Shown here: in pieces, positions 8,650-62,003 of the stretch
How the letters are laid out: each line of letters opens with the position of its first letter
Position numbering within the stretch: the stretch's first letter is position 1
NCBI GenBank assembly: GCA_900696665.1
Contig: CAADGY010000217.1
Location: 124,001 to 188,000 of the forward strand
Reading direction: 5' to 3'
Source: an uncultured Acidobacteriota bacterium
GTDB taxonomy: Bacteria; Acidobacteriota; Terriglobia; Bryobacterales; Bryobacteraceae
DNA length: 64,000 bases
The notes under the pieces: generated by a model
What the model saw: only the letters and a program-made list of their open reading frames with translations
Databases searched by the model: none
Told to the model about the DNA's origin: nothing
Position numbers and translations under genes: made by a program

Positions 8650-8901
8650 GTGAAGTACGTATCAGCAACTGATGCCAAACAGCGGTTGGCTGCCTTGCTG
8701 GATGCGGCACAACGCGAACCCGTTGTCATCCGCCGGCAGAACCGTGATGTAGCGGTCCTGCTTTCGTCGCAGGAGTATAACCGTTTGCGCGCTCTGAATG
8801 CTGCCGAGTTCCAGCGCTTCTGCGATCAAATCGGCGAAGCCGTAGTTGCACGGGGGCTCACTGAAGACAAACTGGCTGAGATCCTCTCGGATGACCGGTA
8901 G
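8650..8901 (+). CDS. Phd/YefM-family antitoxin
   Basis: The 83-residue protein has the classic Phd/YefM N-terminus: VSATDAKQRLAALLDAAQREPVVIRRQNRDVAVLLSS-type spacing, with a YNRLRAL helix. The C-terminal 25 residues would wrap the toxin. The start is GTG at 8650. Its stop overlaps the PIN toxin start by 11 nt, the usual antitoxin-first order of type II systems, and autoregulation by the pair is expected from the family. It runs opposite to the surrounding polysaccharide genes and lies between two direct repeats, so it looks inserted. Confidence 0.88.
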   Translation: MKYVSATDAKQRLAALLDAAQREPVVIRRQNRDVAVLLSSQEYNRLRALNAAEFQRFCDQIGEAVVARGLTEDKLAEILSDDR

Positions 8902-9304
8902 TCAGCGCATCGTTGCCGACAGCAATGTTCTAATCAGCAGGCTTCTACTTCCGCACTCCATTCCTGGCCAAGCGGTCCGCAAGGCCGTCGATACAGGCCA
9001 GCTCCTCGTGTCGGATGCCATGCTGGAGGAGCTTGCCAGCGTTCTTTCACGTCCGAAGTTCGACCCATACATCACCATTGGCGACAGGCAGGAATTTTTG
9101 CGGCTTCTGGGCCGCGTAGCCGAGCGCATCCCGATCATTTACACCGTCCACGCCTGCCGCGATTCAAAGGACAACATGATTCTTGAGGTAGCAGTGAACG
9201 GCAGCGCAGACCTAATCGTCACCGGCGATGGGGATCTCCTCACCCTCGGTACATTCCACGCAATTCCCGTCATTACTCTGGCCAGCTACATACGAATGCA
9301 ATAA
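8891..9304 (+). CDS. PIN-domain toxin (type II TA ribonuclease)
   Basis: This is a probable Mg-dependent RNase toxin of the PIN family (COG1569-like). From the ATG at 8891 the 137-residue product reads VADSNVLISRLLLP at its N-terminus (first catalytic Asp), followed by LVSDAMLEELASVLSRPKF with a conserved acidic residue. It then has CRDSKDNMILEVAVNG and SADLIVTGDGDLL (later acidic residues). All four expected acidic positions appear intact, so it should be active. The chosen start overlaps the antitoxin stop by 11 nt; an upstream in-frame codon at 8846 lies inside the antitoxin and is rejected. Confidence 0.88.
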   Translation: MTGSQRIVADSNVLISRLLLPHSIPGQAVRKAVDTGQLLVSDAMLEELASVLSRPKFDPYITIGDRQEFLRLLGRVAERIPIIYTVHACRDSKDNMILEVAVNGSADLIVTGDGDLLTLGTFHAIPVITLASYIRMQ

Positions 9305-11793: not shown

Positions 11794-12936
11794 TCAGCTT
11801 ACGATTTTCTTGATTTCCTCGTAAATACCGCGTAATGCCGCAGCGCGAGCCGCCGGGGAGTAGTGCGTCCGGACGTGCGCCGCGGCCGCTTGTCCCAGTG
11901 AAGCCGTGCGCTCCGGTTCCTCCAACAAACGTTTTATGCCGTTCGCCAGTGCTTCGGGATCGTGTGGCGGCGCCAGCAGGGCGGTCCGGCCATCCCCGGC
12001 AATCTCCGGTACGCCGCCCACTGCCGCCGCGACAATGGGCAGACCCGCGGCCATTGCCTCCAGCAACACGTTCGGGGATCCTTCACTGTGCGACGGCAGC
12101 ACCAGCAAATCCGCGGCTCCGTAATAAGAGCGCACATCACTGGTGTGCCCGGCTAACACCACACGGTCCCCCAGTTCCCGGGCGACGCGTTCTAAATTCG
12201 CTCGCTCCGGTCCATCGCCCACCAGAACCAGGCGGAACGGCAACCCGGCTTGCCGGGACGACAGCAGACGCACCGCTTCCAGCAGATCTTTGTGGCCTTT
12301 CTCCGGAGACAGGCGTCCTACCGCCAGAATCAGCTTCTCCCCGGGCTTCACCAGTTTTTGCCGGATTGCGCGTGCCGCCTCCGATCGAAGCCCCTCGCTC
12401 CATTGGGGCGAAATCGCGTTGTGCAACACGCGTATGCGGCTGTGGGGTACGCCGGCGCTCCGTATCTGCTCTTCAAAAGCGCCGGTTACCGTCAGCACCA
12501 GCCGGGCTTTTTTCATTGCCCTCCGGCTCAGACGGTTATAGATCTCCATCTTCAGGTCTTCTTTCGTATAGCCGTGGTGAAACGCGATCCAGGGATAGCT
12601 TTTCCACAATCCCGACCACCGCAGCAGAAAATGTGACTTGGCGTTATGCGTTTGAATGATGTCCGGCTCCAAAAGGGCGGCGGTGCGGCCGATTGCACCA
12701 AAGACCCGCAGGTCGAACCGTGACGTTTCGGGAATGACTTCACAGCGTACGCCGGCATCCCGTACCGCTTCCAGAAAAGTATCCGATGCGCCGGCGGCCG
12801 CGCCGCGGCGGAACGTCGCGATGCACACTTCCACACCTCCGGCTCCCTGTTTCCGCACTTCGCGGCAGAACTCCAACAGGTTTTTGGCCGGTCCGGTCAG
12901 CGTATGCGCTTCGATCATCGAAAGAACCCGTATCAT
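11794..12936 (-). CDS. glycosyltransferase family 4
   Basis: The 380-residue GT-B enzyme has two Rossmann halves. Landmarks are IIQTHNAKSHFLLR, VLTVTGAFEEQIRSAGVP, VLHNAISP, LAVGRLSPEKGHKDLLEA, LVGDGPERANLERVARELG and the EX7E donor loop LPSHSEGSPNVLLEAMAAGLP. It is the first gene of a minus-strand operon (GT, MurF-like, PP-loop) that starts 33 bp from the divergent GT2 gene. It retains activated-sugar binding residues, so it is probably functional. Sugar specificity is unknown. Confidence 0.9.
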   Translation of the reverse strand: MIRVLSMIEAHTLTGPAKNLLEFCREVRKQGAGGVEVCIATFRRGAAAGASDTFLEAVRDAGVRCEVIPETSRFDLRVFGAIGRTAALLEPDIIQTHNAKSHFLLRWSGLWKSYPWIAFHHGYTKEDLKMEIYNRLSRRAMKKARLVLTVTGAFEEQIRSAGVPHSRIRVLHNAISPQWSEGLRSEAARAIRQKLVKPGEKLILAVGRLSPEKGHKDLLEAVRLLSSRQAGLPFRLVLVGDGPERANLERVARELGDRVVLAGHTSDVRSYYGAADLLVLPSHSEGSPNVLLEAMAAGLPIVAAAVGGVPEIAGDGRTALLAPPHDPEALANGIKRLLEEPERTASLGQAAAAHVRTHYSPAARAAALRGIYEEIKKIVS

Positions 12937-42238: not shown

Positions 42239-42823
42239 GTGGTGGCAACCCTCTATCGCGTCTTTCCCTGGCAACCGGACTCCGCCCCGTCTGAGCCCGG
42301 CGGCGCGCTCTATATTCCTCCACAGGGCGCCGGGCGGATCGATAACCCGGGTATGTATGCGGTGTTGTACCTGAGCGACACCGCCGAGGGCGCTATTGCC
42401 GAAGCCTTCGGCCGGTTTCCCGAGTGGACGCCGGCCATCCTGGCAGGCAGTCCGGCACTGCCCCGCAGCACTCGCGCCATCGCGCAGTATCGATTCCGTG
42501 GAGAGCTTCCGCTTTGCGACCTGGACGATGCCGCGCGCCTACTCGCCCTCGAACTCCGGCCCTCGCAGGTTGTCACCCGGGATTACACGCAAACCCGCGC
42601 CTGGGCGAGAACCATCTTTGAGCAGAGCCGGTGGGCCGGCATTCGCTGGTGGTCCTACTACCGGCCTGAATGGGGTAGCATCGGGCTTTGGAACATGGCG
42701 GCTTTGACGCTGGAAAACGTCCGCCCCCTGCGCCTGGACGATGTGGACCTGATCGCCGCCGGCCGGACGATTGTGCGCCGCGTGACGGCTTCCGCCGCGC
42801 GTAAACCCGGCGCTTCCCGATAG
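42239..42823 (+). CDS. RES-domain toxin (NAD+-consuming)
   Basis: The 194-residue RES-family protein is the toxin of the MbcA-RES type II pair; characterised members degrade NAD+. It shows TLYRVFPWQPDSAP, GGALYIPPQGAGRIDNPGMY (R/N-type RES signature), YLSDTAEGAIAEAFGRFPEW, and RWAGIRWWSYYRPEWGSIGL near the C-terminus. The start is GTG at 42239, 3 nt after the antitoxin stop. The frame is intact, so an active toxin is likely. It lies next to decayed toxin-antitoxin remnants in an accessory block. Confidence 0.88.
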   Translation: MVATLYRVFPWQPDSAPSEPGGALYIPPQGAGRIDNPGMYAVLYLSDTAEGAIAEAFGRFPEWTPAILAGSPALPRSTRAIAQYRFRGELPLCDLDDAARLLALELRPSQVVTRDYTQTRAWARTIFEQSRWAGIRWWSYYRPEWGSIGLWNMAALTLENVRPLRLDDVDLIAAGRTIVRRVTASAARKPGASR

Positions 42824-45940: not shown

Positions 45941-47419
45941 TTAGCCACGAAGCAGGCTGAGGACCGCTTGCGGAGCGGCGTTCGCCTGAGCCATGGCGGC
46001 AATGGAGGCCTGCTGCATCACCTGGGCCTTGGTCAGGTTCGCGGCTTCCTCGGCCACGTCGGCATCGCGGATGCGGGACTCGGCAGCCGAGAAACCGGAG
46101 ATCTGCGATTGCGCCAGCGCGATGGCATATTGCAACTTGTTCTGCCCGGTACCTACCCGGCCCTGGACGGTGCCAAGTTGCTCGACCGCCGCCGTGATTT
46201 TCTTGATGGCGGCTTCGGCAGCCGAACCATCTCCGCTGCTGGCAGCAGTATAGGCAACGGCGCCTGTGGAAGTGCCGGCTTTGAAACCGACGCCAGCGCC
46301 CACATTGGCCACAACGCTCGCACTGAATTCCTCAGCGCTCTGCAACGAGATCCGGGTGCCGGCGGCGTTCGTGATCGCGTAAACACCGGAGCCGCCCAAC
46401 TGCTGGTTGATGTACGACACGGCAGCGCCAATCGTGGCCGCGTTGGCCTGGGTAAGAGCTAGCGTATACGTACCCTTCTGCGTGGTCACGAGAGCGGTTT
46501 CGCTCTCACCTGCTCCCATTCCAACGAAATCCGCCTCGGCCATGACGCTGTTCAGACTCGTGTTGGCGTCGGCAGATACCGAGTCGGTCGCAATGGAGTC
46601 CGCCGCCGCGGCAACACTGACGCTGAAGGCCACGCCGCTGTTCAGGCGGAGCTTGCCGTCGCCGCCAATGGAAGCCGCAATCCCATAATCGGAAAGCTGT
46701 TCGTTCAGCTTTTGAACGGCTTCCTGGCCGCTGGCGGCGTCATGGGTATAGGTGATGGCAACCGTCGAATTCTGATTGTTGTGGTACATGTGGAACGTCA
46801 GGGTCGCATCCCCGCTGAAGGTCCCCGCCACGTTGTCCAGCCGTACGTTGTTGCCGGTGAGGGAAACACCGCCTGCCGCAATGTTGGTGCCGCTCAATCC
46901 GAGTTTGTCGTAGGTCACGACATTGCTGTCCCCGCTGAGATCGACAGACACTTTGGAGTTGGCCTGCGTCTCGCCGCCGCCGCCGGTGTAGACGTCGATG
47001 ACTTTGTTGAACGTGCCGTTGCTGTCGAGTCCGATGTTGGCCGCCTGGCGGTCGATTTCGTTCAATAGAGCCTGGTATTCGTTGTTCAACGTCTCGCGCT
47101 TCCCGGTGAATGTGACGGAAGCCGACTGCGTTGCCAGCGTCTTCAGCCGGTCCAGCATCTTCGAGATATTGTTCAGGCCGCCGTCGATGATCTGCAATTG
47201 GCTCAACCCGTCGTTTGCGTTCCGTACACCCTGCATCAACTCGGCTGTGTCGGAGCGAAACTTGTTCGCAACCGCCAGGCCGGCTGCATCGTCGCCGGAG
47301 GAGTTAATGCGGTAACCGGAGGTCAACCGCTGGATCGTACGCCCTTGGAAATCGCTGTTCACCCGCAGGTTTTCCTGCGCGATCAGCGCGTTTACGTTGG
47401 TGTTGATTGAGATCGCCAT
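45941..47419 (-). CDS. fliC: flagellin
   Basis: The 492-residue filament protein has conserved D0/D1 termini. The N-terminus is AISINTNVNALIAQENLRVN with LTSGYRINSSGDDAAGLAVA; the C-terminus is VQGRVGTGQNKLQYAIALAQ, DADVAEEAANLTKAQVMQQA and ends QAVLSLLRG. The central 250 residues are a variable Thr/Ser/Ala-rich surface domain, the usual place for O-glycans. The ATG at 47419 gives the canonical flagellin N-terminus; an upstream in-frame start at 47473 is rejected. It follows the TPR-glycosyltransferase by 20 nt, in one operon from a sigma-28-like promoter, and ends at a strong terminator. Confidence 0.97.
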   Translation of the reverse strand: MAISINTNVNALIAQENLRVNSDFQGRTIQRLTSGYRINSSGDDAAGLAVANKFRSDTAELMQGVRNANDGLSQLQIIDGGLNNISKMLDRLKTLATQSASVTFTGKRETLNNEYQALLNEIDRQAANIGLDSNGTFNKVIDVYTGGGGETQANSKVSVDLSGDSNVVTYDKLGLSGTNIAAGGVSLTGNNVRLDNVAGTFSGDATLTFHMYHNNQNSTVAITYTHDAASGQEAVQKLNEQLSDYGIAASIGGDGKLRLNSGVAFSVSVAAAADSIATDSVSADANTSLNSVMAEADFVGMGAGESETALVTTQKGTYTLALTQANAATIGAAVSYINQQLGGSGVYAITNAAGTRISLQSAEEFSASVVANVGAGVGFKAGTSTGAVAYTAASSGDGSAAEAAIKKITAAVEQLGTVQGRVGTGQNKLQYAIALAQSQISGFSAAESRIRDADVAEEAANLTKAQVMQQASIAAMAQANAAPQAVLSLLRG

Positions 47420-47439
47420 ATAAGGTTCAGTCCTTTTGT

Positions 47440-49566
47440 TCAGTGTTGCTGGCTTCCTGCCAGCCGCGGCCATCCTTTGCCGTCACAGAACTCATCGGTG
47501 CAGATATTGGATCTTTGAACCAAAGTTTGAAGTTGTTTTGCTACCTCTGTTATTACGCTTGTCCAGTCGCCCCAGGCCGGCTGCCGGAACAGGCGCATCG
47601 ACGGATACCATGGTGTGCGGTCTCCTTCGATGCCCCAGCGCCAGTCGGGGTTGTAACAGAGCAGGGTCCACACCGGGACACCGAGCGCACCCGCCAGGTG
47701 CGCTGTCATCGTGTCGGCTGTGATCACCAGGTCCAGATTGCGCATGGCCGCGGCGGTATCGCGGATGTCCGGCTGGCGGCCGCTCAGATCGACCATGGGC
47801 AGGCCGGCCCTTTGCGCCTCACTTGCTTCGACGCCCATTTGCAGGTTGAACAGTGTAATACCCGGAAGACCCAGAAGCGCCAGGGATTTGAGGGGCACGG
47901 AACGATGACGGTTGTTGGTGTTCTGCACATTTCCTGTCCACACCAGTCCAACCTTCAATCCGGGATAGCCGGCGATGAACTCGTGCCACTGTGCCAGGCG
48001 GGCGCTATCCACCGAGAGATAAGGTGCCGCTCCGGCAGGCGCGCCGGCGCCTGTTTCGAGCACTCTGGGCAGGCTTAGCAGCGCCACGTGAAAATCGAAG
48101 TGGGGGATATCGCCGCCTTTAGCGATTATCCGGCCGGCGGCAATCCGGCTCTCCGCAAACAAGGCGGCCAGCCCCGGCTGGCATTCGAGCACGATCTTCG
48201 CACCACGCTCGCGCACCGCGTCCAGATACCGGACAAATTGAATGCTGTCCCCCAACCCCTGCTCGGCATAAACGAGGACGGTTTCTCCCTTGAGCTCCCG
48301 CCCGTCCCATTCAGGCTGCAGAAAAGTGCGTCCGGGCACGTCGTTGCGCTTCCAGCGCCATTCATATTCCCGCCAGCCGCGCTTAAAATCGCCGGTCAGC
48401 AGTAGAACAATAGCCCGGCCGAATCGCGCACTCACGTCATCCGGAGCCAACTCCACCGCTTGATTGAGCCACTGAAGCGCCCCTTTATAGTCATGGCGGC
48501 ACAGGGCGGCATAGCCAAGATTGCAATACGCCTCAACAAAGCCTGGAGTCGCCTCTAACGCCTCCTCCAATGCTTCCGCGGCCTCTTTGAAGCGGCCCTG
48601 TTCACATAGCACCCGGCCTAATGCGCTATAGGCCGCGCCATAACCCGGCTTGAGCCGCAAGGCTTCCCGATAACAGGATTCCGCTTCTTCAAAGCGATGC
48701 CTTCTCACCAGCACCAGCCCGAGATTGACCTGGGCTTGCGGTAAGGCCGCCTTCAGGCGGACGGCACGCCGGCAGTGAACTTCGGCCTGCTCGATTTCTC
48801 CTTTTTCAAGAAGAATGGCACCCAGATTAGAATGTGCCTCCGGACAATTGGGCTGGATGGAAAGCGCCTGCCGGCAGAATTGTTCCGCTTCGTCGAGTCT
48901 CGACTGGACCCGCAGCACGGCCCCCAGGTTTGAGAGTGCCTGCACGAGGCCGCGTTTGCTCTCGATGGCCTTCCGGTAGTGCCGCTCTGCCGTTTGATGG
49001 TCGCAACGGTCGTAGTAGAGGTTCCCGAGGTTCATGTGCGCCTCAGCCCCATCCGGATTCAGTTCCAGCGCTTTTCTAAAGGAGGCTTCCGCACCGCCAG
49101 CATCCCCGAGCGAGCGCAAAGCATTTCCCAGGCATGTGTAGGTGACAGCGCAACCAGGTTTGAGTTCGATCGACTTCCGGTACCAGAAGATGGAGTCCGC
49201 GGGCCGGTCCAGCTCTTGCAGCGCATTGCCCAGGTTGGTGTAGGAGTCCGCAAAATCCGGGCGGCAGCGGATCGCCTGTTCATAGCAGTACACCGCTTTC
49301 TCGGGCCTGCCCATCGCCAGCATCACGTTTCCCAGGTTGTTATGAAACATGGGAATACCGGGCTCCAGGCGGATTGCTTTGGCGATGTGCGAAGCGGCCG
49401 CGACATGCTGCCCCGCTTCGTAGAACAGCATTCCGAGCAGATGCCACGCATCGGCATTTTCGGGATTCCCGGTGAGAATGCCGCGATAGAGCGCTTCCGC
49501 CTCCAGCCGGCGGCCCTGCTTTTGTTGTTCCAGGGCGGTTGTGAGTTGATCGAGTGTGGTGGTCAT
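47440..49566 (-). CDS. TPR-containing glycosyltransferase-like protein, probable flagellin modifier
   Basis: The 708-residue protein has about 12 consecutive TPR units across residues 1-412 (EAEALYRGILTGNPENADAW, HNNLGNVMLAMGRPEKAVYC and repeats every 34 residues). A C-terminal GT9/OGT-like domain follows: VLVYAEQGLGDSIQFVRYLD, KVGLVWTGNVQNTNNRHRSV, LVITADTMTAHLAGALGVPV, TPWYPSMRLFRQPAWGDWTS. This domain pairing is known for protein O-glycosylation enzymes. Directly upstream of fliC in the same transcript, it most probably glycosylates flagellin. A smaller paralog is at 42949-44481. Confidence 0.87.
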   Translation of the reverse strand: MTTTLDQLTTALEQQKQGRRLEAEALYRGILTGNPENADAWHLLGMLFYEAGQHVAAASHIAKAIRLEPGIPMFHNNLGNVMLAMGRPEKAVYCYEQAIRCRPDFADSYTNLGNALQELDRPADSIFWYRKSIELKPGCAVTYTCLGNALRSLGDAGGAEASFRKALELNPDGAEAHMNLGNLYYDRCDHQTAERHYRKAIESKRGLVQALSNLGAVLRVQSRLDEAEQFCRQALSIQPNCPEAHSNLGAILLEKGEIEQAEVHCRRAVRLKAALPQAQVNLGLVLVRRHRFEEAESCYREALRLKPGYGAAYSALGRVLCEQGRFKEAAEALEEALEATPGFVEAYCNLGYAALCRHDYKGALQWLNQAVELAPDDVSARFGRAIVLLLTGDFKRGWREYEWRWKRNDVPGRTFLQPEWDGRELKGETVLVYAEQGLGDSIQFVRYLDAVRERGAKIVLECQPGLAALFAESRIAAGRIIAKGGDIPHFDFHVALLSLPRVLETGAGAPAGAAPYLSVDSARLAQWHEFIAGYPGLKVGLVWTGNVQNTNNRHRSVPLKSLALLGLPGITLFNLQMGVEASEAQRAGLPMVDLSGRQPDIRDTAAAMRNLDLVITADTMTAHLAGALGVPVWTLLCYNPDWRWGIEGDRTPWYPSMRLFRQPAWGDWTSVITEVAKQLQTLVQRSNICTDEFCDGKGWPRLAGSQQH

Positions 49567-49642: not shown

Positions 49643-49954
49643 TTACGCGTCGAATTCCCAGGAGGAGCCGGCGGGCGCTGCCGCGGCGTGGTATGGTGAA
49701 CGGCTGTGGTTCAATTCCTCCCATTGCGCCGCATGGTGCGCCCGGGCAGCGCGGGCGGCTTTTAATGCCCACTCGAGCAGTTGCCGGGAACAGATCTCCA
49801 GGGTGTGCGCCTCGGGGGAATCCGGGGTGAGCGCCCGTGCCGCTTCTTCCAGTTCCGTCTGGTAGGTGGCCGCTAGATTCCGGGCGTCCGCGTAACAGCC
49901 CTCGGCGACCGCTTTTCGTAAACGCGCCGCGGTGGCGGCGGGCTTCTTCTTCAT
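49643..49954 (-). CDS. small helical protein coupled to fliD (possible FliT/FliS-type chaperone)
   Basis: The 103-residue, Ala- and charge-rich, all-helical protein has no motif I can assign: KKKPAATAARLRKAVAEGCY, ADARNLAATYQTELEEAARA. Its ATG overlaps the fliD stop (TGATG), so it is translationally coupled. Genes in this position after fliD are usually fliS or fliT export chaperones; sequence similarity to them is not evident, so that role is positional inference only. It ends 20 bp upstream of the sigma-28-like element of the next operon. Confidence 0.75.
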   Translation of the reverse strand: MKKKPAATAARLRKAVAEGCYADARNLAATYQTELEEAARALTPDSPEAHTLEICSRQLLEWALKAARAARAHHAAQWEELNHSRSPYHAAAAPAGSSWEFDA

Positions 49955-51348
49955 CAGCTCATGCCCCGGCTGGCTACCCGCATGGACTCGAACATGTTGG
50001 TGAAGTAGGTTACCTGCTGTTCCAGCATCGCAATCAATGCGTCGGCTTCAGCCATCTGTGCTTGTAGCCGTGTTTCCAGGTTCCCAATGCGTTCCTGTTC
50101 CGCGGCGATTCGTGCATCCTGGGACTTGAGAGTGTCCGATAAGGAAGAAATGGTGAGTTCGAGCGCGCTGTCATTCGAGCTCTGGAGACCGTTCACAGCC
50201 GTGGCGGCTGATTGAAGGAAGCCTCCTTCCGTGGTGCTGCCGAAAAAGGCGAGCATCTTCTCAAACTGGTCCTTTGTATTTGCGGAAAAAGTCGCTGAAT
50301 TGAGGCTCAGCCTGCCCTTGTCGTCAAACTCCAAACCGAGATCCGCGAGCGAGGAGATTTCTCCTGTTCCTGAAGAATAGGAAGCGGCGCTGCGGAGCGT
50401 GTCCGCGACTGTCGCAATGATACTGTGCCCTTTCAGCACGCCGTTACCCTGTCCGCGGTGCAAATCCAGTTCAGTGACCGCGGCGTTGTAGGCATTGACA
50501 AACGACGATAACGCGTTGCTGACGGAGCTCGTATCGCGGGATATGGTGATGGTGACCGGATCCGCCGTGTTCTCCTGCTGTTTCAGCAGGTCTATGGTAA
50601 GGCCGGACGCTATGTTTACAGTCCGGGAGTCGCTGGTCGCTGTCGTAGAGGAACCATTAACGATGTATTGGGCCGGAGATCCCGCTGTCAGTTGGTCAAG
50701 AAGGTCGTTTGTGCCGTCGGTGAGTTGGATCTGGTCTGTGGAGAGTTTTTTCAACTGAATCGAGATTCTATAATCCGGCGTGCTGCCGCCAACATTCACA
50801 ACAGAAGCCTGAACATCGCCGCCGGCTTGCAGGTTGATCTGCTCCACCAGCGCATTCAGGTTGTTTTTACCGGTAAGATCGATATCGTAAGTTGTCTTGA
50901 CCGCGCTCTCCGCATCCAGGATCTTCAGTTGATAGGTGCTGGAAGCGGTGAGATTTTCCTTCGAGGCGTCTTTTACCTGGAGGGTAACCGGATCGGCATC
51001 GGCCCAGTTTTTACCCATCGTGTTGGTATAAGCGCCCAGCTCCTTTACCTGAACCGTGTACGTGCCGGCCAGAACGCCTTCCCCCAGACTGGCTTTCACG
51101 ATAGAGGTATCCGAAACTGAGTTTTTGTACGAGTTCAGCCCCAGGGATGCGCCCAACGTGGAAATGGCCGATTGCACCTGGTCGACCTTGGTTTTAAGGC
51201 TGCTCACTGCCGAGGATTGGCTGTTGAGCACACCCCGCTCGCTCTGCATCTGGCTAAGCGGCAGTGAAGCGATGGCCACAGCGCGATCGATCACGGATTG
51301 GAAATCCGATGCATAGCGGCTGGAGCCAGTGAATATGGTTGAACTCAT
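49954..51348 (-). CDS. fliD: flagellar hook-associated protein 2 (filament cap)
   Basis: The 464-residue FliD caps the filament and assembles flagellin. Visible features are the N-terminal helical region (FTGSSRYASDFQSVIDRAVA, LPLSQMQSERGVLNSQSSAV), the FliD_N/FliD_C region (YNAAVTELDLHRGQGNGVLK, SLADLGLEFDDKGRLSLNSA) and a C-terminal coiled coil (RIAAEQERIGNLETRLQAQM). I use the ATG at 51348 because GGGGGAGG lies just upstream; a second ATG at 51366 would be inside that ribosome-binding region. A sigma-28-like promoter lies 17 nt upstream. It is followed by a coupled small gene. Confidence 0.95.
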   Translation of the reverse strand: MSSTIFTGSSRYASDFQSVIDRAVAIASLPLSQMQSERGVLNSQSSAVSSLKTKVDQVQSAISTLGASLGLNSYKNSVSDTSIVKASLGEGVLAGTYTVQVKELGAYTNTMGKNWADADPVTLQVKDASKENLTASSTYQLKILDAESAVKTTYDIDLTGKNNLNALVEQINLQAGGDVQASVVNVGGSTPDYRISIQLKKLSTDQIQLTDGTNDLLDQLTAGSPAQYIVNGSSTTATSDSRTVNIASGLTIDLLKQQENTADPVTITISRDTSSVSNALSSFVNAYNAAVTELDLHRGQGNGVLKGHSIIATVADTLRSAASYSSGTGEISSLADLGLEFDDKGRLSLNSATFSANTKDQFEKMLAFFGSTTEGGFLQSAATAVNGLQSSNDSALELTISSLSDTLKSQDARIAAEQERIGNLETRLQAQMAEADALIAMLEQQVTYFTNMFESMRVASRGMS

Positions 51349-51364
51349 ACGCCTCCCCCATGAC

Positions 51365-51392
51365 ATATCGGCAGAGCAGGCGTTGAACTTTA
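51365..51392 (-). promoter_or_regulatory. candidate sigma-28 promoter of fliD
   Basis: On the minus strand TAAAGTT (51392-51386), then GCCGATAT (51372-51365), the TAAA and GCCGATAT being 16 nt apart, against the consensus TAAA-N15-GCCGATAA. It lies between the repA stop and the fliD ribosome-binding site, so fliD has its own flagellar-class promoter and does not depend on repA read-through. Confidence 0.75.
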
Positions 51393-51405: not shown

Positions 51406-52914
51406 TCAGACCGCGAAGAGAGTAATTTGCGGGCTTCGGCAGCAGAACGTTTCGAAGCTAGGAAGCGGCACGGTCTTCTTCAAGTCCGCGCGCACTGAAC
51501 GCTCCGCGATCTCCGTAAGGGTATCATCGGGCAACTTGGGCCAGGTGCTTTTTATATCCTTGATTTTGCGTCTGACGAGCGAATTGAAGTTTGCCTCATC
51601 CATTTCCGTCTTCAGAAAGCGATCGATCTCCTCTTCACAGAAGCGCTCATAGGACTGTTCCAGTTCTGCGCGGTGCAGGTTGATTCTTCGCCTTTCTTCT
51701 GTGCTCGCCTCGCGCATAAGCCGTTTGGCGGAAGTTTCAAAACTGTCCGGTGGAAGAATATTCTCGCGCAGCAGGTAGGTGTAGAATCCCGGAGGATTCT
51801 GGATGGCGCTTTTGGAGCGGGCGATCAGCCAGTCGCCATATTCGAGTTGGTCCATAACAGGCTGTTCTTGTGGAAGGGCCGCCAGCAGCCGGCGCGCTTG
51901 TTTCTGATTCAGCCCGCGGCTGGTCAGCGCGGCAAGCAGAGGTGGGGAAGAATCTTCGGATGCGCCTTCGGCCTCCCCGGCAAGAACAGCCCGTGGCTTG
52001 TGATCCCGGAAAAACTTCTCACCATGCTCGGCGACAATCTTGTAGTCGCGCCCGTCGCTGGTCGGTTCGATCCGCACACTCGACAAATAACCATGAAATT
52101 GCAACTCGGCCAGGGACGGTTCCAGTTGCTTCTTGATCAGTGAGAGGTGTTTTTGCCGCCGGATATCGAGAATTGTACAGAGGTCTTCGTAGCGTTTCTC
52201 GAAGCGCCGTTCACTCCGCGACGCATAGAGCCATACCTGCAGCAGCGGCACCAGGGCTTTAGCGATATGGTTTTTTAATTTGCGGTACGTTTCAAAATCG
52301 ATTGGCAGGACGTAGTTGTTGTTGATGTTTTCCAGTTGCCACTCGGAAAGCCAGACGTAGTTCCGGTCGGCCACTGAACCATCCGGCATCTGCATACCGA
52401 ATGCCGCGACACGGTCGAAGACGTGAAAGGTATCGGTAGCCCAGGCCCTTCTCCGGGAAAAATAAACAACTCCTTTGGAGCTGATACCGGTCAGGGTCAT
52501 GCGTTGCAGCCATTCGAAAACATCCTGGTAGTTGTTACCGGCGTTCTTGATCCCGAGAACGTTCAGCAATTGTGTGGATGTGAAGCCGATGGGATTGGAA
52601 ACCTGCCCCTGTTGTAAGCGCAGGTCATTGACAATTTTTTGAAACGCCAGATACTTGTCCTGGTCGGCGGTGCTGGGCAGCCCGTACTTGGCGGAAGGCA
52701 GAATCGTGGCCTCCGCGTCAATTGTCTTCCCATTAATCTCACGTTTGAAGCGGACGGTTTTCTCACTTACTTCCACCTTCCCGCGGGATTTAGAAGGGGT
52801 GAAGAACCCGAGTGTGCTCAGGTTTTTCTCCACTTTGACGAACTCGCGCTGCCTGGTTACCCCGGAGCCGGATTCACCAGCGGGCCGGGTGTGTTTCGTC
52901 CTACCTGCTGTCAT
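51406..52914 (-). CDS. repA: replication initiator protein A (RPA/RepA-type)
   Basis: The 502-residue protein belongs to the plasmid replication initiator RepA family (PF10134-type winged-helix initiators). Visible segments are FFTPSKSRGKVEVSEKTVRF, SAKYGLPSTADQDKYLAFQK, FTSTQLLNVLGIKNAGNNYQ, WATDTFHVFDRVAAFGMQMP, WLSEWQLENINNNYVLPIDF, HIAKALVPLLQVWLYASRSE and RRFEKRYEDLCTILDIRRQK. The C-terminal 170 residues are accessory and charged. Upstream are an AT-rich stretch and GTACGG repeats as expected for an iteron-controlled theta origin. It is unusual to find it directly followed by fliD. It may be a chromosomal or chromid initiator, or a relic of an integrated plasmid. Confidence 0.88.
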   Translation of the reverse strand: MTAGRTKHTRPAGESGSGVTRQREFVKVEKNLSTLGFFTPSKSRGKVEVSEKTVRFKREINGKTIDAEATILPSAKYGLPSTADQDKYLAFQKIVNDLRLQQGQVSNPIGFTSTQLLNVLGIKNAGNNYQDVFEWLQRMTLTGISSKGVVYFSRRRAWATDTFHVFDRVAAFGMQMPDGSVADRNYVWLSEWQLENINNNYVLPIDFETYRKLKNHIAKALVPLLQVWLYASRSERRFEKRYEDLCTILDIRRQKHLSLIKKQLEPSLAELQFHGYLSSVRIEPTSDGRDYKIVAEHGEKFFRDHKPRAVLAGEAEGASEDSSPPLLAALTSRGLNQKQARRLLAALPQEQPVMDQLEYGDWLIARSKSAIQNPPGFYTYLLRENILPPDSFETSAKRLMREASTEERRRINLHRAELEQSYERFCEEEIDRFLKTEMDEANFNSLVRRKIKDIKSTWPKLPDDTLTEIAERSVRADLKKTVPLPSFETFCCRSPQITLFAV

Positions 52915-52952
52915 TTCGATTTAGGTGCTCTTTCCGCTATGGCGTCTGTCAC

Positions 52953-52981
52953 AGAATAACGCTCCAACAACAACAGCACAA
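52953..52981 (-). promoter_or_regulatory. candidate repA promoter
   Basis: On the minus strand TTGTGC (52981-52976) is followed after 17 nt by TATTCT (52958-52953), about 40 nt before the repA ATG. The inverted repeat AACAAC-N10-GTTGTT (52969-52990) overlaps the -35, a plausible autoregulatory site. Confidence 0.4.
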
Positions 52982-53070
52982 TATGTTGTTAAATAAGCAT
53001 CAGAATTGTATCTAAGTGTTGTTAGAGATTTTGTAAGTATAACAATCCTAGGTAGTTACTATCAGTTTTG

Positions 53071-53417
53071 TTGGATTGAGGTACGGCCAAATTTTCTTTG
53101 AGGTACGGTAGTATTTGTTCTCGGGTACGGCGCCGCTTGAATTGCGGTACGGTCTTTTTGAATTGAGGTACGCCCCGCGGCTGGCACCCGTACAAGACGA
53201 TCTAGGGAACACCCGAAGCCCGGTGGACCGTACTTCAAATCAAATTCGGCCGGGTAGCCCAGGGCATGTACAGGATCAAAATTTGGATTGAAGTACGGTG
53301 CAACAGCCGGTTTGGATTGAAGTACGGTCAAGATGAGAGAGGAACAAAGACTTTAGATTGTGCATTGTGAAGGACCCTGGCAGACTGAATGACCTGATTG
53401 TTGGATTGAAGTACGGT
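53071..53417. repeat. iteron-like repeat array
   Basis: Three identical 17-bp copies of TTGGATTGAAGTACGGT occur at 53283-53299, 53312-53328 and 53401-53417. A fourth, TTGGATTGAGGTACGG, lies at 53071-53086. Related GTACGG or GTACGC cores lie at 53103, 53125, 53147 and 53168 on the plus strand. Minus-strand copies end at 53188-53193 and 53228-53233 (GATTTGAAGTACGGTCC). Spacing varies (29 bp and 89 bp between identical copies). The cores diverge towards the AT-rich end. Confidence 0.85.
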
Positions 53418-53431
53418 CCCGGCAGTGTAAT

Positions 53432-53453
53432 CAGAGCAGGTATACCCGCTCTG
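53432..53453. repeat. 22-bp near-perfect palindrome
   Basis: The left arm CAGAGCAGGTA and right arm TACCCGCTCTG pair at 10 of 11 positions around a TATA centre. It lies 14 bp after the last iteron-like repeat. Such size and symmetry suit a dimeric DNA-binding protein. Confidence 0.7.
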
Positions 53454-53802
53454 TCCGTTTCTCCCACCGGCCTATCTTGAAGGAAGTCTCCCACAGAAGC
53501 TCCGTTGCATTTTGTCCGAAACTTCCGCAATTCCGGGGTGTTGGCTTTGCTGGAGGGCGGATCTGTACTTGCGGGAAAACTAGGAGGAAAAGTACTTGTT
53601 TTGTAGCCACTGCAAGCGTTAGTCGGACCTGTGATCCCTTGCAGCCAAAGGAATTATTTCATTGGCGATGCGTTTGCAAGTCCTCCGGCTGATCACATGG
53701 TACAGCGAACCGTAGACTATGCTGTTTTGGAGATGGTGTCGGTCCTGTTTCAGGTCGCGGTCGCAGTGCTGAAACGGATTCGAGGAACCGAGCGGCCGGA
53801 GT

Positions 53803-54768: not shown

Positions 54769-55722
54769 TTATTTCCCTGCGCGGGAGCGGTGCCACTCGG
54801 CAAAGATTCTGATTCCCTCCTCAAATGGCGTAGAAGGTGAATAGCCAAGGAGCCGCCGCGCCTTGCCGATGTCGGCATACGTGATGGGCACATCGCCGGG
54901 CTGATCCGGCAGACGCTGTATGGTTGCTGTTTGGCCGAGGGCCTGCTCAATAGCGCGAATCATCGACGTGAGCGTGACGGGACACGAATTTCCGAGGTTG
55001 AACACCTCGTAAGCACAATCGTACGCAATGGCGCCAAGAATACCTTCCACCGTATCCTCAACGAATGTGTAATCCCGCCCTGCCGAACCGTCGCCAAAAA
55101 CAGGAATAGGCCGGCCTTCACTGATCATCTCCGTGAACTTGCGGATCGCAAGATCCGGCCTTTGCCGCGGACCGTACACCGTGAAGAAACGCAAACAAAC
55201 TACCGGGAGATGGTAGAGGTGAGAATAGGTGAAACAGATCTTCTCGCCTGCCAGTTTTGTCGCTGCGTAAGGAGAGATGGGAAGGTTCACCTGGTCTTCT
55301 TCACTAAAAGGTACGCGGTTTGCGATGCCGTAGATGGAGCTGGACGAAGCAAAAACAAATTTAGGGACTCCCAACTTACGCGCACCCTCTAACATCACCA
55401 ATGTCCCTCTTACATTGACGCTTTCATAAAGTAAAGGATCCGCAATCGATGGCCTTACTCCCGCCCGGGCGGCGAGATGAACGATAACTTCGGGGCGGGT
55501 GTCGGCAAGGATCGAATGGACCCGCTCCTGATCCCGGATATCGCACTCGTAAAATCCAAAAGATCCGGCGGCCCGAATACAGACAAGATTTTCCTGCTTT
55601 AACGCGGGCGCATAAAAATCATCCAGATCGTCAATTACGAATACCTGGTGACCCTCTCCAATTAATCTTTCACAGAGATGTGAGCCGATGAAGCCGGCGC
55701 CGCCGGTGACGAGGATCCTCAT
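54769..55722 (-). CDS. NAD-dependent sugar epimerase/dehydratase (UDP-glucuronate 4-epimerase-like)
   Basis: The 317-residue extended SDR protein has GGAGFIGSHLCERLIGEG (GxxGxxG NAD site at about 7-13), VIDDLDDFYAPALK, HLAARAGVRPS, VFASSSSIYG, ISPYAATKLAGE (catalytic Tyr-x3-Lys) and FFTVYGPRQRPDLAI. These are features of UDP-glucuronate 4-epimerases and relatives. It supplies a nucleotide sugar for the exopolysaccharide. It is divergent from the large secreted protein gene at 55952 and convergent with the deacetylase. The exact substrate is uncertain. Confidence 0.9.
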   Translation of the reverse strand: MRILVTGGAGFIGSHLCERLIGEGHQVFVIDDLDDFYAPALKQENLVCIRAAGSFGFYECDIRDQERVHSILADTRPEVIVHLAARAGVRPSIADPLLYESVNVRGTLVMLEGARKLGVPKFVFASSSSIYGIANRVPFSEEDQVNLPISPYAATKLAGEKICFTYSHLYHLPVVCLRFFTVYGPRQRPDLAIRKFTEMISEGRPIPVFGDGSAGRDYTFVEDTVEGILGAIAYDCAYEVFNLGNSCPVTLTSMIRAIEQALGQTATIQRLPDQPGDVPITYADIGKARRLLGYSPSTPFEEGIRIFAEWHRSRAGK

Positions 55723-60710: not shown

Positions 60711-62003
60711 TTATCCAGCCGCGGCTGCCTGCCGCCCGTTTATCACGCCGTCCAGATGTTGTGCGAATACCTGAAGATTCGTGTGCCAGCAGAAACGCCG
60801 CTGTGCGGCAAGCCGGATCTCCGGGCCGGCGGCTATACAGGGCATTTTCAAGGCGTCCATATAAGCCTGCGCCGTGTCACAACGAGATACTCCCACTGGC
60901 AACTGTGGTCCAAATGTTTCACAAACAGCCGCCGAGGCACAGACGTGCTTTCCCATCGCGAGAGCCTCCAATACCTTGTTTTGGATGCCACGAGCGATAC
61001 GCAGTGGAGCTACGCAGGCCTGTGCCGCCGCGATGAAAGGACGGACATCCGGCACATCGCCGGTCACCAGGACACCGGGCTGATTACCCAATGCACGGAC
61101 AGAATCCAACGGATTCCGCCCGACAATGAAGAATTCAAGATCCGGATCGGCTTCACGAAGGCGGCTGAAAACTTCACCGGAAAACCATGTGACGGCATCC
61201 ACGTTGGGGTAGTAGTCCATGGCTCCCACAAACACAATGAGCCTCCGGTTCCGGAGTTCGCCGGTGGGGATCACTACGGCCGGATCGAAGTAGGCAAAGT
61301 CTACGCCGTTCTCCATCGCGCGGGAAGGAACATCCCGGGCAAAACTGCGAAACAGTTCCTGTTCCCGATCGGTGGCAAAGAAGGTGCACTGGGCAATCTG
61401 AGCCAGGTCCGTTTCGATACGGCGAAATCTGCGTGCCTCCATCCGGTACAAAAATGCCGGCTGCCGCATGCGGGCATAATCAAACCACTTTTCCGAATCA
61501 ACGTCCACCATGTCCAGCAATAAAGGAATATGCGTGGGAGCATACTGTGCCATCGCCGAAGAGAAAGCCACCGTAGCGGCAATTGGGCCCGTGCATTTGG
61601 ATTCGATCTGTTGTCGCATCCGGCGGCTGGCATAAAAGGAATTCACCAGGCTCTTGCCTCGTACAAACTCAGCCGCGGCGGTTATGAGGGCGGACTTGGA
61701 GGGGAGCAGTTCGACATAAACAGACCGGCAACAATCCGTCAGGGCTTGCGCATGTTCCATTTCCTCGCTGGTGCGGGCAAAACAGAATAGATGAACTCCA
61801 TATCGGTCTGCCAGCAGCCGTAAAAGGTGGAAAGCCCGAATTCGTTCCCCTTTATCTGGCGGATTGGGAACACAGTGCGAGAGAAACAGGATTTCTATAT
61901 CAGGTTGGTAGGCGGAGCAGGATTCGAACCGTGCGGCCTCCTCTGTGTATTTAGAGGCGCTCTGCCATTGAGCTATCCGCCTGTCAGGTTTAACCAAAAA
62001 CAT
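60711..62003 (-). CDS. exosortase-associated sugar transferase (TIGR03087-like)
   Basis: The glycosyltransferase body, from ILFLSHCVPNPPDKGERIRA onward, matches the PEP-CTERM/EpsH1-associated family: LLLDMVDVDSEKWFDYARMR, RRLIVFVGAMDYYPNVDAVT, RIARGIQNKVLEALAMGKHV. The expected start is just before ILFLSH (codon 61892), but no ATG, GTG or TTG lies there. The only conventional starts (ATG 62003, TTG 61997) precede a tRNA gene that the frame reads straight through (residues about 8-34 are tRNA-derived). The true start is therefore unresolved: an ATA/ATC codon, or translation through a defunct tRNA. Operonic with the 59340 GT. Confidence 0.8.
   Translation of the reverse strand: MFLVKPDRRIAQWQSASKYTEEAARFESCSAYQPDIEILFLSHCVPNPPDKGERIRAFHLLRLLADRYGVHLFCFARTSEEMEHAQALTDCCRSVYVELLPSKSALITAAAEFVRGKSLVNSFYASRRMRQQIESKCTGPIAATVAFSSAMAQYAPTHIPLLLDMVDVDSEKWFDYARMRQPAFLYRMEARRFRRIETDLAQIAQCTFFATDREQELFRSFARDVPSRAMENGVDFAYFDPAVVIPTGELRNRRLIVFVGAMDYYPNVDAVTWFSGEVFSRLREADPDLEFFIVGRNPLDSVRALGNQPGVLVTGDVPDVRPFIAAAQACVAPLRIARGIQNKVLEALAMGKHVCASAAVCETFGPQLPVGVSRCDTAQAYMDALKMPCIAAGPEIRLAAQRRFCWHTNLQVFAQHLDGVINGRQAAAAG
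61906..61982 (-). tRNA. tRNA with atypical anticodon loop (possibly a tRNA pseudogene)
   Basis: The minus-strand sequence folds as a cloverleaf: acceptor AGGCGGA/TCCGCCT with discriminator A and encoded CCA, D-stem GCTC/GAGC, anticodon stem CCTCT/AGAGG, and T-loop TTCGAAT. Two features are abnormal. The anticodon loop has 8 nt (AAATACAC) and no U33. The T-stem 5' strand is GCACGG against CCTGC, i.e. one inserted C relative to a perfect stem. The anticodon therefore cannot be assigned. It is either a decayed tRNA or an unusual one. Confidence 0.65.

What the first reader, a model, noticed from the sequence alone, without database searches (positions are those of the whole stretch)
52915..53460. 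Iteron-type replication origin and RepA beside flagellar genes
Ten GTACG-centred motifs, three of them identical 17-mers, lie between an AT-rich stretch and a palindrome, immediately upstream of an RPA-type initiator gene. The next genes are fliD and fliC with their own promoters. Either the window is on a chromid or megaplasmid carrying motility and exopolysaccharide genes, or a plasmid replicon has integrated between the flagellar and exopolysaccharide blocks. A live secondary origin in an acidobacterial chromosome would be notable.
Basis: partly seen in the sequence, partly recalled or inferred. Interest (0 to 1): 0.78.

Follow-up and report, generated by a model that had tools for sequence, protein, structure and literature searches.

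The report
Acidobacterial plasmid carrying the flagellin genes
The stretch is the replication start of a 192-kb plasmid that appears to be circular, from an uncultured acidobacterium; the plasmid carries sugar-coat genes and the only flagellar filament genes found in that genome assembly, so swimming may depend on a plasmid.

Summary
Ten GTACG-centred iterons, three with an identical 17-mer, lie between an AT-rich stretch and a palindrome, directly upstream of an RPA-family (PF10134) initiator gene. The same layout precedes 53 of 54 related Rep genes, each clade with its own iteron word; the closest relative (70% identical Rep) has the same word. The modelled Rep has the tandem winged-helix fold of RepE, pi and RctB. 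The contig also carries ParA, a partner ORF inside a palindrome array, a tyrosine recombinase, toxin-antitoxin and exopolysaccharide/exosortase genes, and no rRNA. It holds the only fliC and fliD found in the 92%-complete assembly; flgK, flgL and flhA are on other contigs, and in a relative fliC and fliD sit on a 6.7-Mb contig. The replicon is an ordinary new member of a known kind; the split between plasmid filament genes and a motor coded elsewhere is the interesting part. A secondary chromosomal origin is not supported.

The parts
51406..52914 (-). rep: RPA-family (PF10134) replication initiator, 502 aa; residues 28-303 modelled as a tandem winged helix, followed by a helical C-terminal part
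   Evidence: Pfam 34.3 bits vs cut-off 27; AlphaFold model pLDDT 84.5; VIA-align Z 15.3 RctB, 13.1 RepE-iteron complex, 12.8 pi-iteron complex; related genes on closed Acidobacteriota plasmids
53070..53417 (+). iteron array: ten GTACG-centred units, eight in one direction, two inverted (53189, 53229); proximal five at 21-22 bp phase, three distal units share an identical 17-mer
   Evidence: same word in the 70%-identical relative L053
52970..53069 (.). AT-rich stretch between iterons and rep, likely unwinding element and rep promoter region (inferred)
   Evidence: GC 27.5% at 52980-53059; equivalent AT-rich stretch in L053, L057, L061, L100; sigma-70-like match 53065-53036(-), not above chance
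53432..53453 (.). palindrome CAGAGCAGGTATACCCGCTCTG containing a one-mismatch copy (CAGGTATACCCG, 53437-53448) of the 12-bp palindrome clustered at the par genes
51365..51392 (-). sigma-28 (FliA)-type promoter TAAA-N16-GCCGATAT before fliD, inside the rep-fliD gap
   Evidence: 11 of 12 consensus positions; 4 such hits in 192 kb, 0-2 in shuffles
49954..51366 (-). fliD, flagellar filament cap (start probably the ATG at 51348, as the promoter overlaps the first ATG); the only fliD found in the assembly
   Evidence: PF07195 2.7e-33; single copy; sequence
49643..49954 (-). 103-aa ORF between fliD and the TPR gene; no family match; position suggests a flagellar chaperone (inferred)
47440..49566 (-). 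TPR-repeat protein between fliD and fliC; a related protein lies near fliC/fliD in relative G010
   Evidence: Pfam TPR
45941..47473 (-). fliC, flagellin; the only full flagellin found in the assembly
   Evidence: PF00669 and PF00700; the other Flagellin_N match in the assembly is FlgL on C29
53803..54729 (+). polysaccharide deacetylase (DUF3473 type), start of the exopolysaccharide genes on the other side of the origin
54769..55722 (-). NAD-dependent sugar-nucleotide epimerase/dehydratase
8650..9304 (+). Phd/YefM antitoxin and PIN toxin pair on the same contig
42239..42823 (+). RES-domain toxin-like protein on the same contig

Best explanation
The region is the replication origin of a low-copy plasmid of about 192,238 bp, apparently circular, in a Bryobacteraceae-like acidobacterium. 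Rep, an RPA-family tandem winged-helix protein, binds the phased iterons (inferred), melts the adjacent AT-rich stretch and loads the host replisome (inferred), and probably limits copy number through the same iterons, as in RepE/F, pi/R6K and TrfA/RK2 (inferred from established biology). A separate ParA plus partner-ORF module 75 kb away, with a cluster of CAGGTATACCTG palindromes and one variant copy at the origin, partitions the plasmid (inferred). The plasmid carries exopolysaccharide/exosortase genes and the fliD-TPR-fliC filament genes. fliD has a sigma-28-type promoter, so the plasmid filament genes are probably driven by the chromosomal flagellar regulon to complete a motor encoded on other contigs (inferred).
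For: Iterons, AT-rich stretch and RPA gene verified. The architecture is conserved in 53 of 54 RPA loci, each clade with its own iteron word and mostly 21-22 bp phase; L053 (70% Rep identity) has the same word. RPA genes of this type lie on closed Acidobacteriota plasmids pACIX901, pACPOL2 and pACPOL4, with repeats upstream. Fold match to RepE, pi and RctB. Apparent circularity: C217:1-169 equals 192239-192407 at 99% (2 mismatches), found nowhere else in the assembly, and the ends join into one uninterrupted minus-strand frame of more than 1000 codons. ParA (PF13614 1.4e-34), recombinase (PF00589 1.5e-31) and partner ORF are homologous to modules lying beside RPA in L054, L057, L062 and L100. 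No rRNA on the contig. Detrended GC-skew minimum at 173,129, 2-4 kb from rep and iterons (range p=0.018). fliC and fliD only on C217; flgK/flgL on C29 and flhA on C195.
Against: The end overlap has 2 mismatches rather than being exact and lies in an Ig-like repeat, so a repeat-caused break at both ends is not strictly excluded. No read coverage or long reads were available. No DnaA box at up to one mismatch in the origin region. The partition module is 75 kb from rep, unlike in relatives. The MAG is 92% complete, so a chromosomal fliC/fliD could be missing. T. roseus shows that RPA replicons can sit on a chromosome-sized record.
Confidence: 0.87

Rival explanations
1. An RPA plasmid has integrated into the chromosome between flagellar and exopolysaccharide blocks, leaving a second origin there.
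For: Terriglobus roseus has an RPA gene with 13 iterons, flanked by tyrosine recombinases and a ParA gene, on its closed 5.2-Mb record. In G011 and G015 the flagellin lies near exosortase genes, so flagellar and exopolysaccharide genes can be neighbours elsewhere. C217 GC and tetranucleotides are close to the rest of the bin.
Against: The ends of C217 overlap each other and nothing else in the assembly, and close one reading frame. No rRNA and no recognisable housekeeping gene among 157 called ORFs (read by eye). Only one tRNA-like gene, missed by ARAGORN.
Confidence: 0.07
2. It is a separate plasmid but belongs to another bacterium and was mis-binned, so the 'only flagellin' claim says nothing about this host.
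For: Plasmids are often mis-binned; another ParA contig in this bin (C15) looks foreign (tetranucleotide correlation 0.857); the nearest Rep is in a bin labelled Omnitrophota (L053).
Against: C217 GC 58.4% against 59.0% for the bin; tetranucleotide correlation 0.88-0.96 per 20 kb, against 0.93-0.98 for other contigs of the bin and 0.79-0.93 for relatives. FliC is about 49-59% identical to flagellins of the same family. Without it the bin has flgKL and flhA but no filament gene.
Confidence: 0.13
3. The origin is a silent relic and the replicon is driven by another initiator.
For: The par genes are separated from rep by 75 kb, so the backbone has been rearranged; no DnaA box found.
Against: Rep is intact at 502 aa, with the iterons and AT-rich stretch conserved against L053; it is the only protein in the assembly that matches this Rep.
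Confidence: 0.04

Closest known systems
Acidobacteriota RPA plasmids pACIX901 (Granulicella tundricola), pACPOL2 and pACPOL4 (Acidisarcina polymorpha)
   Same: PF10134 Rep about 31% identical over nearly full length; repeat array and AT-rich stretch immediately upstream; ParA gene close to rep in two of the three
   Different: Different iteron words; ParA lies close to rep in pACIX901 and pACPOL2 but 75 kb away here; no flagellar genes seen around their rep genes
L053 contig (bin labelled Omnitrophota, 5.6 kb)
   Same: Rep about 70% identical; same iteron word CGTACTTCAATCCAA, nine copies
   Different: Short fragment; cargo and host unknown
Phaeobacter inhibens RepA-I exopolysaccharide/rhamnose plasmids (pPGA1_65, pInhi_D69)
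   Same: PF10134 initiator (pPGA1_65 Rep, 8e-102); pInhi_D69 carries a rhamnose operon and is dominated by polysaccharide genes (PMC4062626); loss of the rmlCBDA operon abolishes motility (PMC11974857)
   Different: Alphaproteobacterial and smaller; no flagellin or cap gene is reported in the passages read for these RepA-I plasmids; rhamnose-type genes on C217 are only partly identified
Iteron plasmids F (RepE), R6K (pi), RK2 (TrfA) and Vibrio chromosome 2 (RctB)
   Same: Tandem winged-helix initiator (Z 12.8-15.3) next to phased iterons and an AT-rich stretch
   Different: About 10% sequence identity; no DnaA box found; extra helical C-terminal part of about 200 residues

Membership tests
RPA-type (PF10134) iteron plasmid replicon | Initiator of the RPA family | tested here: met
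   34.3 bits vs cut-off 27; no NCBIfam match
RPA-type (PF10134) iteron plasmid replicon | Array of directly repeated, helically phased iterons beside rep | tested here: met
RPA-type (PF10134) iteron plasmid replicon | AT-rich unwinding region between iterons and rep | tested here: met
   GC 27.5%; melting itself not testable
RPA-type (PF10134) iteron plasmid replicon | Tandem winged-helix initiator fold shared with RepE and pi | tested here: met
   predicted model, residues 28-303, Z 13.1 and 12.8
RPA-type (PF10134) iteron plasmid replicon | DnaA box at the origin (common, not universal) | tested here: inconclusive
   none at up to one mismatch to TTWTNCACA in the region; the acidobacterial consensus was not checked
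RPA-type (PF10134) iteron plasmid replicon | Rep binds the iterons and supports autonomous replication | not testable with these tools
   needs a bench test
Separate circular plasmid | Closed circle | tested here: met
   169-bp, 99% end overlap unique in the assembly and in-frame junction; no reads to confirm
Separate circular plasmid | Partition module | tested here: met
   ParA and partner ORF homologous to modules beside RPA in relatives; palindrome array
Separate circular plasmid | No rRNA genes | tested here: met
   Rfam over the whole contig: one tRNA-like match only
Separate circular plasmid | Mobilisation or conjugation genes (not required) | not tested
   none recognised by eye; no systematic search
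Chromid | Plasmid-type replication system | tested here: met
Chromid | GC within about 1% of the chromosome | tested here: met
   58.4% vs 59.0% in about 199 kb of other contigs
Chromid | Core genes that are chromosomal in relatives | tested here: inconclusive
   fliC/fliD are on a 6.7-Mb contig in G008 but are not essential genes; none other recognised
Chromosomally integrated replicon | Flanked by chromosomal genes | tested here: not met
   both contig ends overlap each other and nothing else in the assembly

The most novel reading that the evidence does not exclude
In this acidobacterium the flagellar filament and cap genes exist only on an RPA plasmid together with exopolysaccharide genes, while the hook-filament junction and export genes are on the chromosome. 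Losing the plasmid would leave a motor without a filament, making the plasmid a swim-or-stick switch that arose independently of the roseobacter 'biofilm plasmids', which also use an RPA initiator.
Probability: 0.4. Interest if true: 0.62.

Novelty: new member of a known kind. Interest (0 to 1): 0.42.

Why it matters
It ties a large family of acidobacterial iteron plasmids, found here in 55 loci of species-representative genomes with clade-specific iteron words, to exopolysaccharide and motility cargo. Splitting one organelle between a plasmid (filament and cap) and other contigs (export and junction genes) would be a clear case of plasmid-dependent motility in a phylum where few plasmids have been studied.

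Tried and rejected
Chromosomal second origin: rejected because of the end overlap. GC skew: the minimum lies near rep, but the range is only modestly above block shuffles (p=0.018) and the maximum is not opposite, so it is used only as weak support. DnaA boxes: none. Sigma-70 promoters: not above chance. A sigma-28 promoter for fliC and for the TPR gene: only 9/12, at background. A first script looked for exact end overlaps and missed the inexact 169-bp one; DNA searches found it. Sequence search against solved structures found nothing credible; the fold search did. Palindrome arrays like CAGGTATACCTG were sought in relatives: a different one (CTCTATAGAG) in L030, none in L054, L057, L062 or L100. 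Whether fliC/fliD lie on plasmids in G011 and G015, where flagellin is near exosortase genes, was not resolved.

Full report
What is there. The intergenic stretch 52915-53460 contains exactly the ten GTACG-centred motifs reported, three with the identical 17-mer TTGGATTGAAGTACGGT. The five motifs nearest rep are spaced 21-22 bp, that is, two helical turns. Two motifs (53189, 53229) are inverted. An AT-rich stretch (GC 27.5%) separates them from rep, and a 22-bp palindrome lies at the far end (53432-53453). GTACGG alone is frequent on the contig (124 copies), so the extended word and its phasing carry the signal; the array scores 7.4 against 1.9-2.7 in shuffled copies of the same stretch. The 502-aa gene 51406-52914(-) passes the PF10134 RPA cut-off.

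Relatives. A scan of genome contigs found 55 loci with a related Rep, nearly all labelled Acidobacteriota. Of 54 with enough upstream sequence, 53 have an array of five or more repeats in front of rep, mostly at 20-24 bp spacing, against a top shuffle score of 3.5; the exception is L059. Each clade has its own word (for example GTGTAGTTCCGTGGA, GAGAGGTGCGCTGGC, CGTACTTCAACGTAA), and the nearest Rep (L053, about 70% identical) has the same word as the window. Closed plasmids pACIX901, pACPOL2 and pACPOL4 have the same layout. Of the window's genome and 60 relatives, only 8 have the gene, as expected of an accessory replicon. The predicted structure (pLDDT 84.5) has a tandem winged helix at residues 28-303 that matches RctB (Z 15.3), RepE on iteron DNA (Z 13.1) and pi on iteron DNA (Z 12.8). 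That the protein works as an iteron-binding initiator is therefore well supported by analogy; binding itself was not tested.

Plasmid or chromosome. The window is bases 124001-188000 of contig C217, 192,407 bp, in a 6.04-Mb, 443-contig assembly. The first 169 bases of C217 match its last 169 with two mismatches, and no other place in the assembly matches either end. Both ends lie in the same minus-strand gene; joined, they give one uninterrupted frame (1126 codons including some before the start), with a signal-peptide-like start and a single stop. The protein domains at the ends also occur nowhere else in the assembly. The simplest reading is a circle of 192,238 bp. The caveat is that the overlap is not exact and lies in a repeat-type domain. 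The contig has no rRNA and one tRNA-like gene. Detrended GC skew has its minimum at 173,129, next to rep, but the signal is weak.

Backbone. C217:99976-100764 encodes ParA (PF13614). A partner ORF follows (99297-100004), with no Pfam match but 40-44% identical to ORFs near RPA in L054, L057, L062 and L100. The tyrosine recombinase at 97543-98424 is 70-78% identical to ones beside RPA in L054 and L062. Exact CAGGTATACCTG palindromes occur at 99283, 99719 and 92176, with near copies at 99764 and 99851 and one at the origin palindrome; about 0.01 exact copies would be expected by chance in 192 kb (simple estimate from 4^12). These are plausible partition sites (inferred). Toxin-antitoxin-like genes lie at window 8650-9304, window 42239-42823, C217:83725-84359 and C217:97025. 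In relatives the par genes are close to rep; here they are 75 kb apart, so the backbone has been rearranged.

Cargo. Glycosyltransferases, sugar-nucleotide enzymes (RmlA- and RmlC-like, dehydratases), exosortase (PF09721) and other exopolysaccharide genes dominate C217 (the bulk of the gene content was read by eye from translations, not searched). Several other RPA loci also carry such genes near rep. Next to rep lie fliD, a 103-aa ORF, a TPR gene and fliC. A sigma-28-type promoter (11 of 12 positions) sits in the 40-bp rep-fliD gap. In the whole assembly the only FliD match and the only full flagellin are on C217, while flgK and flgL are on C29 (flgK by eye) and flhA on C195. In relative G008 fliC and fliD are on a 6.7-Mb contig. 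So, within the limits of a 92%-complete assembly, the filament is plasmid-coded and the rest of the flagellum is not. None of the 55 RPA loci has a fliC or fliD match within the up to 6 kb fetched on each side.

Compared with what is known. The replicon is a new member of the RPA-type iteron plasmids. Plasmid-borne flagellin is known as an extra copy (flaE on pRL11 of Rhizobium leguminosarum, PMC2936354), and whole flagellar clusters occur on Rhodobacterales plasmids (PMC11974857). RepA-I plasmids of Phaeobacter carry a rhamnose operon and polysaccharide genes (PMC4062626), and the pPGA1_65 Rep is PF10134. I found no paper on this arrangement in Acidobacteriota in the library searched, which lacks most subscription journals.

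Verdict. Observation confirmed; first alternative supported (0.87); chromosomal second origin unlikely (0.07). The chromid label is only partly met: plasmid-type origin and matching GC, but no essential gene shown.

Noticed in passing
window 61909-61982 (-): tRNA-like gene (Rfam 52.4 bits) missed by ARAGORN; by eye an 8-nt anticodon loop and a bulged T arm; it overlaps the start of a called glycosyltransferase ORF.
   Followed up: partly
L092 (Terriglobus roseus NC_018014, 3765442-3778917): RPA gene with 13 iterons, tyrosine recombinases, a ParA-like and a TraD/VirD4-like gene (by eye) on a closed 5.2-Mb record: an apparently integrated RPA replicon, possibly a second origin.
   Followed up: partly
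G000:C15 (L036, L037): Another ParA contig (78 kb) in the same bin with GCCGTTATCGGC-type repeats, a Rep-like gene and divergent composition (correlation 0.857): a further plasmid or a contaminant.
   Followed up: no
L043 (G011:C355), L045 (G015:C212): Flagellin genes near exosortase genes on contigs of relatives, similar in content to C217 but with no RPA match in those assemblies.
   Followed up: no
L030 (G007:C7), 12427-12731: Four CTCTATAGAG palindromes upstream of an RPA gene next to what looks like a ParA gene: a different likely partition-site array.
   Followed up: no
L053: Contig in a bin labelled Omnitrophota with a Rep 70% identical and the same iteron word; probably a mis-binned acidobacterial plasmid fragment.
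   Followed up: no
C217 ends (L013:1-1022, L020:3548-4405): Large apparently secreted protein in which two domains 63% identical to each other flank an Ig-like domain; it spans the circle junction.
   Followed up: partly
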